Shown piece by piece: positions 4,583-6,940 of a DNA stretch of 26,256 nt (the first letter of the stretch is position 1; each line of letters starts with the position of its first letter). The DNA lies in IMG/VR virus record IMGVR_UViG_3300009788_000277, positions 1 through 26,256 of that record, one strand, 5' to 3'. The notes under the pieces are model-generated. The model had not been told where the DNA came from. It made no database searches and was given only the letters and a program-made list of their open reading frames with translations. Both the position numbers and the translations under genes were made by a program. This stretch comes from a virus.

Positions 4583-4948
4583 TTACTCTGTAGGCTCCTC
4601 ATTGATCTGCGTCTTAATCCGCACCAGCCAGCCAACACCACTGTTCGTGTCCGTCTGGTAGTGCAGCGTTGTGTACCCGTTCGGTATCTGTATCTCAATG
4701 CTGTGGCCAATCCCCACTGCCCACCGGATATTAGTCGCGGTCGCGGTCGTGGCCAATCCGAATAGGAACGCGCCTGTCTTAGTGCAGGTAAATCTATATC
4801 GAGCACCAGCTACGACTGTGGCCGTGGTGTTTGTGGCCGCACTCCCATTGGTCAGTTTTTGGCTCGTTGCCCCCGTGCCTATAATTGGCTGACTCTGGCC
4901 GGGGCTTGGGCTGGTATTGAATCCACCATTATCTATTGGTAATCCCAT
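4583..4948 (-). CDS. Phage structural or decoration-like protein, 121 aa
   Basis: A 121-residue protein rich in Thr, Ala and Gly. The N-terminal 30 residues are low-complexity (NGGFNTSPSPGQSQPIIGTG). The body (VVAGARYRFTCTKTGAFLFG, then HSIEIQIPNGYTTLHYQTDT) reads as a compact beta-sandwich of the kind seen in small head-decoration or tail-associated virion proteins. An AGGAG Shine-Dalgarno lies 8 nt before ATG 4948. Assignment as structural is inference from composition and from its place in the late arm; no active-site motif is present. Confidence 0.55.
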   Translation of the reverse strand: MGLPIDNGGFNTSPSPGQSQPIIGTGATSQKLTNGSAATNTTATVVAGARYRFTCTKTGAFLFGLATTATATNIRWAVGIGHSIEIQIPNGYTTLHYQTDTNSGVGWLVRIKTQINEEPTE

Positions 4949-5326: not shown

Positions 5327-5539
5327 TTATTTACTCTGTTTACCCGCGTGTCTCCGCAACTGTCCTGTCGTTCGATTATTCCTATGAAATTTGGCCTCCA
5401 GTTTGCCTTTTCGCACTCGGAAACTTATATCATGGGTCAAATAACAGTCGCAACATGCCAGCTTCATTCCAGTTTTGGGCATGTTAATCCATTCTCCATC
5501 CCATACTTGTTCGTATGTCACTGCTGTTTTGGCTGTCAT
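5327..5539 (-). CDS. Small phage protein with CCDC motif, 70 aa
   Basis: A 70-residue protein with the conserved-looking core MKLACCDCYLTHDISFRVRK and a basic C-terminus (KFHRNNRTTGQLRRHAGKQSK). I have seen this type (ACCDC..H...F) in many phage early and late operons, with no known function; the cysteines and His may bind metal. The start is ATG 5539. Its Shine-Dalgarno, GGTGAT, is formed by the 3' acceptor strand and discriminator of the tRNA-like structure immediately upstream, so access to this start may depend on that fold. Confidence 0.65.
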   Translation of the reverse strand: MTAKTAVTYEQVWDGEWINMPKTGMKLACCDCYLTHDISFRVRKGKLEAKFHRNNRTTGQLRRHAGKQSK

Positions 5540-5541
5540 AT

Positions 5542-5599
5542 CACCGGGCCAGGGAATTGAACCCCGCAGCGTCCTGACTGGCCATCTCCAGTGCCCGGT
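5542..5599 (-). ncRNA. tRNA-like cloverleaf, 58 nt, lacking normal central arms
   Basis: On the minus strand a 7-bp acceptor-like stem pairs ACCGGGC (5593-5599) with GCCCGGT (5543-5549), all Watson-Crick. A complete T-arm follows tRNA rules: CGGGG, loop TTCAATT, CCCTG, containing the B-box-like GGTTCAATTCC. Between them only 26 nt remain. They fold without spare bases into two hairpins: ACTGG/CCAGT with loop AGATGG, and CAG/CTG with loop GACG. A normal tRNA has about 41 nt there, so no standard anticodon arm exists and no CCA is encoded. It starts 3 nt after the stop of the 43-aa gene and ends 2 nt before the next ATG. It could be a degraded tRNA or a tRNA-mimicking translational control element. 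Confidence 0.5.
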
Positions 5600-5602
5600 A
5601 TA

Positions 5603-5734
5603 TCAGAGCGGTAAGGATTGTCCACCTATTGTAGCGCAACACGCCGCCGCTCTGTTACTATTAGCCTGAGCCGACTCCGCAGAGTACACGCCCTGGCCTG
5701 TTGAGGACTGTTGCCCTCTATATCTACCGAACAT
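5603..5734 (-). CDS. Small hypothetical protein, 43 aa, first gene of left arm
   Basis: The product begins MFGRYRGQQSSTGQGVYSAE and continues with Ala/Asn-rich sequence ending GGQSLPL. I chose ATG 5734 because a perfect AGGAGG lies directly before it. Longer in-frame starts upstream would run through the 12-bp repeats and add a repeated MEFY peptide, which looks accidental. No family recognised. It is the first gene transcribed to the left from the central region, and the tRNA-like element follows 3 nt after its stop. Confidence 0.55.
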   Translation of the reverse strand: MFGRYRGQQSSTGQGVYSAESAQANSNRAAACCATIGGQSLPL

Positions 5735-5760: not shown

Positions 5761-5820
5761 AAAATTCCATATAAAATTCCATATAAAATTCCATATAAAA
5801 TTCCATATAAAATTCCATAT
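5761..5820. repeat. Five perfect 12-bp tandem repeats
   Basis: The unit AAAATTCCATAT occurs five times without a mismatch, in phase, directly upstream of the leftward operon. Just before it lies a 12-bp palindrome TTTTGGCCAAAA (5753-5764). The number of identical copies suggests recent expansion or active selection, as for protein-binding iterons. On the minus strand a frame starting at ATG 5825 and ending at TAG 5724-5726 would read the repeats as YGIL units (33 aa), but no Shine-Dalgarno is at the right distance. Confidence 0.9.
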
Positions 5821-6184
5821 CTCATTTTTGACCAGTGGGTGTCAGAGACTCCTTAAATTAAACCAAATTAAACCAAATTAGATTAGATGGCCAACCCATA
5901 TAACACACGATTTGGCCTGTTTTGTGTTCAAAATGGTTCTTACATGTGATGAGCATCTCATCTACTGTATTTTTATCCCACCTATTTTTGGCCGGTGGGT
6001 GTCACTCGATTTGGCGTTTTTTGTGCTGGCCGGCGGGGTCCGAGAGGGGGGAGGGGACTCCGGCCTGGCCAAATCCGAGGGTGGGACCCCCCACCCATAC
6101 CCGATACAGGCCCGATACAGGCCCGATACAGGCCTTGCCTATACGTGCCCCTACAAGCTCGCTGCTGCCCGTCTAATGGACGAT
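5821..6184. other. Gene-poor intergenic DNA with degenerate duplications
   Basis: No convincing gene. The 10-bp unit AACCAAATTA occurs twice (5861-5880), with a partial third copy before it. A 21-nt element ending GTGGGTGTCA occurs at 5824-5844 and, with two changes, at 5984-6004, exactly 160 bp later. CGATTTGGC recurs at 5908 and 6007. A GC-rich hairpin with arms GGGTGGG and CCCACCC lies at 6079-6096. A rightward frame at 5912-6250 stays open but runs through repeats and palindromes and lacks a ribosome-binding site. Confidence 0.6.
6100..6132. repeat. Three 11-bp tandem repeats
   Basis: CCCGATACAGG is repeated three times exactly. It sits between the GC-rich hairpin at 6079-6096 and the inverted-repeat array. 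The related string CCGATACAGGG recurs at 6877-6887 in the leader RNA, so it may be a binding site. Confidence 0.85.
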
Positions 6185-6792: not shown

Positions 6793-6832
6793 TTGACAAA
6801 ATACAGTTTTTGTCTATAATTAGGTATAGACA
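6793..6832 (+). promoter_or_regulatory. Consensus sigma70 promoter with overlapping palindromic operator
   Basis: TTGACA (6793-6798) and TATAAT (6815-6820) match both consensus boxes exactly with a 16-bp spacer, pointing rightward. A perfect inverted repeat, TGTCTATA (6811-6818) and TATAGACA (6825-6832) with a 6-bp centre, overlaps the -10 box and the expected start site, the usual place for a repressor operator. A second TATAAT at 6833-6838 with TTGTCT 17 bp upstream could be a weaker tandem promoter. This is the obvious promoter for the rightward genes; the cognate repressor is not identified here. Confidence 0.8.
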
Positions 6833-6940
6833 TATAATGCTATTTGACAATTGTAAAATAGGAGGTTATCATGTAACCGATACAGGGAAAGCCTGTAGTC
6901 AATGACCGTTATTCTTGATGGTCATTGACTATGAGTTTTT
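6827..6940 (+). ncRNA. Leader RNA with start-stop minigene and hairpins
   Basis: From the likely start near 6827 to the T-run at 6940, about 114 nt carry no normal gene. AGGAGG (6860-6865), spacer TTATC, then ATG-TAA (6871-6876) form an ideal initiation site followed at once by a stop. GGTTA/TAACC (6864-6878) can fold around that ATG, and TACAGG/CCTGTA (6881-6897) forms the next hairpin. Then comes the terminator-like hairpin. The element could be a small RNA or an attenuator controlling the early operon. Confidence 0.5.
6894..6940 (+). terminator. Terminator or attenuator hairpin before first rightward gene
   Basis: AGTCAATGACC (6897-6907) pairs perfectly with GGTCATTGACT (6920-6930) across a 12-nt loop. 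The stem can grow by three outer pairs (two of them wobbles) to 6894 and 6933. TTTTT follows at 6936-6940. The outer bases overlap the 3' strand of the preceding TACAGG/CCTGTA hairpin, so the two structures compete slightly. It lies 24 nt before the first rightward ATG, which fits attenuation. Confidence 0.6.

What the first reader, a model, noticed from the sequence alone, without database searches (positions are those of the whole stretch)
5542..5599. 58-nt tRNA-like cloverleaf filling an intergenic gap and holding a ribosome-binding site
A perfect 7-bp acceptor stem and a rule-abiding T-arm with a TTCAATT loop frame only 26 nt, which fold into two small hairpins with no spare bases. This is too short for a normal tRNA. 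The fold fills the gap between two genes, and its 3' acceptor strand runs into GGTGAT, the Shine-Dalgarno of the next gene. It could be a decayed tRNA or a mimic that gates translation or recruits a tRNA-binding protein, as thrS-type leaders do in bacteria. The gating idea is inference.
Basis: partly seen in the sequence, partly recalled or inferred. Interest (0 to 1): 0.75.

Follow-up and report, generated by a model that had tools for sequence, protein, structure and literature searches.

The report
Anticodon-less tRNA-like element in phage
A phage genome carries, squeezed between two late genes, a 57-nucleotide RNA that copies the shape of a transfer RNA but has no room for an anticodon; similar odd tRNA-like RNAs turn up in other phages, including the laboratory phage N4, so it is probably a tRNA mimic or a tRNA relic rather than a working tRNA.

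Summary
The acceptor-plus-T-arm combination occurs 0.003 times per shuffled window. It is not a decoding tRNA: no anticodon, and ARAGORN and Rfam reject it. Its only homologue (L002) is identical and truncated, so covariation of this element cannot be tested. Near the same place, some terminase relatives carry true tRNAs (Gly, His), tRNA-likes with odd anticodon arms, or a 40-45-nt 'mini' class in which 9 of 11 pairs show two-sided changes. Independently, phage N4 and about 60 relatives carry a mostly unannotated 62-nt tRNA-like with encoded CCA and no anticodon arm of normal form, with compensatory changes. Best reading: an anticodon-less tRNA-like RNA, probably excised from the late message by tRNA-processing enzymes (inferred). 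Main rival: a decayed tRNA. Ribosome-site gating and thrS-type mimicry are not supported. Caveat: in a 221-nt context the cloverleaf is not the favoured fold.

The parts
5543..5599 (-). 57-nt compact tRNA-like cloverleaf without an anticodon arm of normal form
   Evidence: not a tRNA by ARAGORN or Rfam
5593..5599 (-). acceptor stem, 5' strand ACCGGGC
   Evidence: 7/7 Watson-Crick pairs with 5543-5549 (sequence)
5577..5592 (-). D-like arm ACTGG-AGATGG-CCAGT, loop ends in GG
   Evidence: fold
5567..5576 (-). 3-bp, 4-nt-loop stub CAG-GACG-CTG where the anticodon arm would be
   Evidence: fold
5550..5566 (-). T arm CGGGG-TTCAATT-CCCTG
   Evidence: fold; matches the T arm of RF01684 at 15.6 bits
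5543..5549 (-). acceptor stem, 3' strand GCCCGGT
   Evidence: sequence; runs into G5542 (discriminator position), no encoded CCA
5540..5545 (-). GGTGAT, Shine-Dalgarno-like, overlaps the last 3 nt of the acceptor
   Evidence: sequence; -7.7 kcal/mol with the anti-SD, about half paired
5327..5539 (-). 70-aa ORF directly downstream; no database family
   Evidence: only an identical copy found
5603..5734 (-). 43-aa ORF directly upstream (probable true start at 5734 behind AGGAGG; listed from 5818)
   Evidence: sequence; inference on the start

Best explanation
A tRNA-like RNA without an anticodon, embedded in the phage's late transcript. SHOWN: a compact cloverleaf with acceptor, D-like and T arms can form; there is no regular anticodon arm; it lies between two late-strand genes; true tRNAs or other anticodon-defective tRNA-likes lie near the head of the late operon in some relatives; two other anticodon-less phage tRNA-like classes (mini class, N4 class) show compensatory changes. 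INFERRED: the RNA closes a tRNA-like elbow (GG of the D loop against the T loop), so that host tRNA-processing enzymes (RNase P at the 5' end, RNase Z or exonucleases at the 3' end) excise it from the late message, leaving a small stable RNA and a processed message end close to AUG 5539. It would not decode. What the free RNA then does (mere processing punctuation, protection of the message end, or binding a host tRNA-binding protein) is open; I rank punctuation plus a small stable RNA first.
For: Perfect acceptor plus T arm, expected 0.003 times per window. Tight position between genes. In 8 of about 66 terminase-family contigs with 3 kb or more upstream, a tRNA or tRNA-like lies in operon orientation 1.9-4.0 kb before the terminase gene; the nearest relative L003 has a mini tRNA-like at the matching place, also directly before a start codon. 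Mini class: 7 independent phage loci, 9/11 pairs with two-sided changes, 0/500 shuffles. N4 class: 62 nt, followed by ACCA, in a tRNA cluster, 6 pairs with two-sided changes. mascRNA, equally linker-free and 57 nt to the acceptor end, folds as an L and is released by RNase P and RNase Z (PMC11693755); RNase P also acts on phage M3 and C4 RNAs and on mRNAs (PMC11143913).
Against: No covariation data for the element itself. Long context favours another fold. No encoded CCA. Most terminase relatives, including close ones (L011/L207, L209, L212, L214), have no tRNA-like there. No transcript data. Weak CM scores and no match to the mini model.
Confidence: 0.45

Rival explanations
1. A decayed tRNA: the phage once carried an ordinary tRNA in the late operon, an internal deletion removed most of the anticodon arm, and what remains is a recent fossil without function.
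For: True tRNAs in a similar place in L067, L039 and L167, and partly degraded ones in L042 and L062; no sign of conservation of the window element beyond one identical contig.
Against: All four stems are fully paired; the stub uses every base; other anticodon-less phage tRNA-likes are demonstrably kept by compensatory change, so loss of the anticodon need not mean decay.
Confidence: 0.34
2. A cis-acting translation gate: the acceptor stem hides the GGTGAT ribosome site of the 70-aa ORF; a ribosome ending at TGA 5605-5603, or a tRNA-binding protein, changes access to it.
For: The 3' acceptor strand overlaps GGTGAT by 3 nt; the upstream stop codon lies 3 nt before the element (sequence).
Against: GGTGAT is about half paired with or without masking of the 5' strand; L003 has no such site; no synthetase or other gene known to use tRNA mimicry follows.
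Confidence: 0.1
3. A remnant of an attachment site: the phage integrates into a tRNA gene and carries part of it.
For: Integrating elements do leave partial tRNA genes in genomes (PMC9897764).
Against: No integrase recognised in the window (the record may be a fragment); attachment sites carry a stretch of a real tRNA, whereas here both acceptor strands and a D-like arm are present around a missing middle.
Confidence: 0.05
4. Chance: a GC-rich inverted repeat with a T-arm-like hairpin, no tRNA connection.
For: Modest z-scores (-1.5 to -2.2) and a competing fold in the longer context.
Against: 0.003 expected per window for acceptor plus T arm; tRNA-like element at the matching place in L003.
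Confidence: 0.06

Closest known systems
mascRNA / menRNA (RF01684), tRNA-like RNAs cut from MALAT1 and MEN-beta
   Same: Same size to the acceptor end (57-58 nt), 7-bp acceptor, standard T arm, small D arm with GG, no single-stranded linkers at the junction, within a longer transcript (PMC11693755).
   Different: Different kingdom; D-like arm longer (16 against 10-11 nt) and middle arm shorter (10 against 15-17 nt); score far below the Rfam cut-off; processing not shown.
N4-class phage tRNA-like (phage N4 EF056009.1 about 32,869-32,930; found here, labelled tRNA-Undet or tRNA-OTHER in a few records)
   Same: Phage-encoded, compact, acceptor plus T arm, GG, no ordinary anticodon arm.
   Different: Encoded CCA, lies in a cluster of true tRNAs, middle hairpin with conserved GUGCAC loop, no sequence relation to the window element.
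Mini class, 40-45 nt (L003, L069, L088, L094, L103, L122, L124; found here)
   Same: Acceptor plus T arm; in L003 at the matching place of the late operon.
   Different: No D or anticodon hairpin, invariant ACCGGGYAT connector; the window does not match the model.
RNase P substrates other than tRNA (phage M3 RNA, C4 antisense RNA, his operon mRNA)
   Same: Acceptor/T-arm half inside a longer transcript.
   Different: Cleavage not tested here; listed from PMC11143913.

Membership tests
canonical tRNA | 7-bp acceptor stem stacked on a 5-bp T arm with TTCRANN loop | tested here: met
   7/7 and 5/5 pairs (one G-T), loop TTCAATT
canonical tRNA | 5-bp anticodon stem with 7-nt loop and an anticodon | tested here: not met
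   only CAG-GACG-CTG; ARAGORN finds none
canonical tRNA | RF00005 score at or above gathering (29 bits) | tested here: not met
   no match; best of the clan 13.6 bits to tRNA-Sec
canonical tRNA | 3' CCA after processing, charging | not testable with these tools
   CCA is not encoded; addition by enzyme unknown
mascRNA-menRNA (RF01684) | compact linker-free cloverleaf with D-loop GG | tested here: met
   sequence and fold against PMC11693755
mascRNA-menRNA (RF01684) | covariance-model score at or above gathering (42.5 bits) | tested here: not met
   15.6 bits, T arm only
mascRNA-menRNA (RF01684) | release by RNase P and RNase Z | not testable with these tools
   needs enzyme assays
mini class of this report | ACCGGGYAT connector and match to model R1 | tested here: not met
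   5.7 bits at a different register
thrS-type operator or other synthetase leader mimic | anticodon-like loop before a synthetase gene | tested here: not met
   no anticodon-like 7-nt loop; next gene is a 70-aa ORF without family
tmRNA | tRNA-like ends around a tag-coding region | tested here: not met
   57 nt in all; ARAGORN finds no tmRNA

The most novel reading that the evidence does not exclude
Phages encode a widespread, largely unannotated group of tRNA-like RNAs that have lost the anticodon and are kept by selection (about 40-62 nt, several independent architectures). They are made from tRNA clusters or the late operon, processed by host tRNA enzymes, and act on the host's tRNA machinery or on processing of phage messages rather than in decoding. 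The window element is one such form.
Probability: 0.4. Interest if true: 0.75.

Novelty: new variant of a known kind. Interest (0 to 1): 0.5.

Why it matters
tRNA finders discard, or label as undetermined, tRNA-like genes without an anticodon. If phages keep such RNAs under selection, as the mini and N4 classes indicate, then well-known phages hold a layer of small RNA that can be tested directly for RNase P processing, CCA addition, charging and binding partners. The window element itself is a single example whose conservation is untested.

Tried and rejected
Rfam at gathering and permissive thresholds. Pattern search for the 57-nt form in viral contigs: only the identical L002. Blastn against cultured phages: nothing for the region, only short T-arm-sized chance matches for the element. 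Idea that cleavage after the acceptor generally makes leaderless messages: dropped, because the ATGs next to the minis of L094 and L122 do not open convincing genes. Membership of the window element in the mini class: rejected. Conservation in all terminase relatives: rejected, about 8 of 66 contigs. A competing hairpin (CGGGU/ACUCCG) that RNAfold prefers for some minis was set aside because T-stem pairs 18-32 and 19-31 covary. The mini core in 84,980 bacterial and archaeal genomes: no hit, which is also what chance predicts. Literature searches in the open papers held found no description of anticodon-less phage tRNA-likes; subscription papers could not be searched, so prior description is not excluded.

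Full report
WHAT IS THERE. The interval reads on the minus strand. From 5599 down to 5543 it is ACCGGGC ACTGG AGATGG CCAGT CAG GACG CTG CGGGG TTCAATT CCCTG GCCCGGT: a perfect 7-bp acceptor, a 5-bp D-like arm whose 6-nt loop ends in GG, a 3-bp hairpin with a 4-nt loop, and a 5-bp T arm with loop TTCAATT, with no unpaired base at the junction. G5542 follows in the discriminator position, then AT, then ATG 5539 of a 70-aa ORF (5327-5539). Before it stand TAT and the TGA (5605-5603) of another small ORF. That ORF is listed from 5818 and runs through five copies of a 12-bp repeat, but an ATG at 5734 behind AGGAGG is the better start. The window is a 26-kb virus record with matches to a family-A polymerase, RecG-like helicase, PD-(D/E)XK nuclease, AAA ATPase and DNA methylase. 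ORF 517-2445 is taken as the terminase large subunit from weak similarity to annotated phage terminases. No integrase or synthetase was recognised.

IS IT MORE THAN CHANCE? The isolated element folds into the cloverleaf as MFE and centroid (-26 kcal/mol, z -2.1), and so do 62-nt and 100-nt contexts. Dinucleotide shuffles of the window give a 7/7 Watson-Crick acceptor stacked on a T arm of this quality 0.003 times per window, and none in 300 with a D-like hairpin as well (the last criterion is post hoc). Two caveats: the 100-nt context is not unusually stable (z -0.08), and in a 221-nt context a longer competing fold reduces the cloverleaf acceptor to about 6%. Translation of the upstream ORF or co-transcriptional folding could change this; that is inference.

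WHAT IT IS NOT. ARAGORN finds no tRNA or tmRNA. Rfam has no match at gathering level; permissive scanning gives mascRNA (15.6 bits, T arm only) and tRNA-Sec (13.6 bits), both far below cut-off. There is no anticodon and no encoded CCA.

RELATIVES. The element and the ORF behind it have one homologue, an identical contig cut inside the element, so covariation of the element itself is untestable. I therefore collected relatives of the terminase and of the gene at 4583-4948. In 8 of about 66 distinct contigs with at least 3 kb upstream of the terminase gene, a tRNA or tRNA-like lies in operon orientation about 1.9-4.0 kb upstream. These are tRNA-Gly(TCC) in L067; tRNA-His(GTG) in L039 and L167; two odd elements in L042 (ARAGORN: one undetermined with an 8-nt anticodon loop, one called Arg but without an Rfam match); two in L062 (one with a 5-nt anticodon loop, called Ser; one with an AGCG-GTAA-CGCT hairpin instead, not found by ARAGORN); 40-45-nt minis in L003 and L069; and the window. 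Elsewhere one tRNA was found in the record of L041. L003 is the nearest relative covering the region. Its mini lies about 0.55 kb before the homologue of 4583-4948 and directly before a start codon; the window element lies about 0.6 kb before 4583-4948 and also directly before a start codon, although the genes between differ. Other close relatives (L011/L207, L209, L212, L214) show none. So the site sometimes holds a tRNA-like, and its architecture changes.

THE MINI CLASS. A pattern from L003 and L069 found seven independent phage loci sharing the core ACCGGGYAT-GNNGG-TTCRACT-CCNNA inside acceptors of quite different sequence. In the five that align without gaps, 9 of 11 pairs have changes on both sides and 96% of cells pair; no shuffle of 500 reaches either, and slid controls collapse. 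The core has no match in 84,980 cellular genomes. The window element does not match this model: it is an analogue at a matching place, not a member.

N4. Scanning all fetched DNA for compact tRNA-likes turned up a 62-nt element followed by ACCA in E. coli phage PGN829.1. More than 60 records hold it (76-100% identity), including phage N4 at about 32,869-32,930, where nothing is annotated between gp47 and gp48; a few records call it tRNA-Undet or tRNA-OTHER. In N4 it lies in a cluster with four ordinary tRNAs. Eleven sequences show two-sided changes in 4 of 5 pairs of the middle hairpin and 2 of 5 of the T stem, with a conserved GUGCAC loop. A copy occurs in a myovirus of another group (05F01). 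This is independent evidence that phages maintain tRNA-likes without an anticodon.

MECHANISM. A compact cloverleaf with GG in the D loop and a TTCAA T loop has the parts that make the tRNA elbow. mascRNA, 57 nt to the acceptor end and also without junction linkers, folds as an L and is released by RNase P and RNase Z (PMC11693755). RNase P also acts on phage M3 and C4 RNAs and on mRNAs (PMC11143913). The most likely behaviour is therefore excision from the late message by tRNA enzymes, giving a small RNA and a processed message end. Everything beyond the possible fold and the location is inference for this element. The strongest rival is recent decay of a tRNA like those of L067 or L039. Gating of GGTGAT is weak: it is about half paired whether or not the 5' strand is masked, and L003 has no such site.

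VERDICT. The single element is a modest finding; the group it points to is more interesting and can be tested in phage N4.

Noticed in passing
Phage N4 EF056009.1 about 32,869-32,930 (L217:870-931); L204:907-968 and >60 related records: 62-nt tRNA-like followed by ACCA, no normal anticodon arm, conserved palindromic GUGCAC loop on a covarying hairpin, inside the tRNA cluster; mostly unannotated. The palindrome could allow loop-loop dimers (untested).
   Followed up: partly
L003:3154-3193, L069:503-547, and the matches in L088, L094, L103, L122, L124: Mini class of 40-45-nt tRNA-likes: acceptor plus T arm with invariant ACCGGGYAT connector, in unrelated phages; L088 lies beside true tRNA genes.
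   Followed up: partly
L204:638-729, L200, L201 (PGN829.1, swi2, Mulvp2; also Klebsiella phage GP-1): About 90-nt unannotated element with a 10-bp or longer acceptor-like stem and T arm GCGG-TTCGACT-CCGC, same T arm as the mini class, in four unrelated enterobacterial phages.
   Followed up: partly
L217:about 938-1042 (N4) and L204:about 975-1097: Longer tRNA-like elements with long acceptor-like stems and T arms next to the 62-nt element; the L204 one ends in ACCA.
   Followed up: no
L119, L121, L128; possibly L084, L085, L126: tRNA-like genes that ARAGORN misses, with roughly 60-90 extra nt in the anticodon region; might be intron-bearing tRNAs.
   Followed up: no
L101 and L135, around the matches: tRNA-likes whose anticodon arm is replaced by CCGGG-TGCA-CCCGG or CCGGA-TGCA-TCCGG, a compensatory pair of changes.
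   Followed up: no
L133:254-13007, especially 4677 and 5774: Phage contig with 38 predicted tRNAs in 13 kb and further 59-65-nt tRNA-likes without anticodon that ARAGORN does not call.
   Followed up: no
L203:701-800 (Erwinia phage Hallingskeid): GCCAGT...ACTGGC element holding two complete T arms, one of them where the D arm would be.
   Followed up: no
L082 and L083:5667-5707 (-): 41-nt acceptor-plus-T-arm element in terminase relatives, on the strand opposite to the late genes (19.9 bits).
   Followed up: no
window 5761-5820, 5855-5880, 6100-6134: Perfect tandem repeats (12, 10 and 11 bp units) in the gene-poor stretch between the divergent gene blocks.
   Followed up: no
window 6793-6872 (+): Perfect sigma-70-like promoter TTGACA-16-TATAAT and two near-perfect ones in tandem, facing the early genes.
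   Followed up: no
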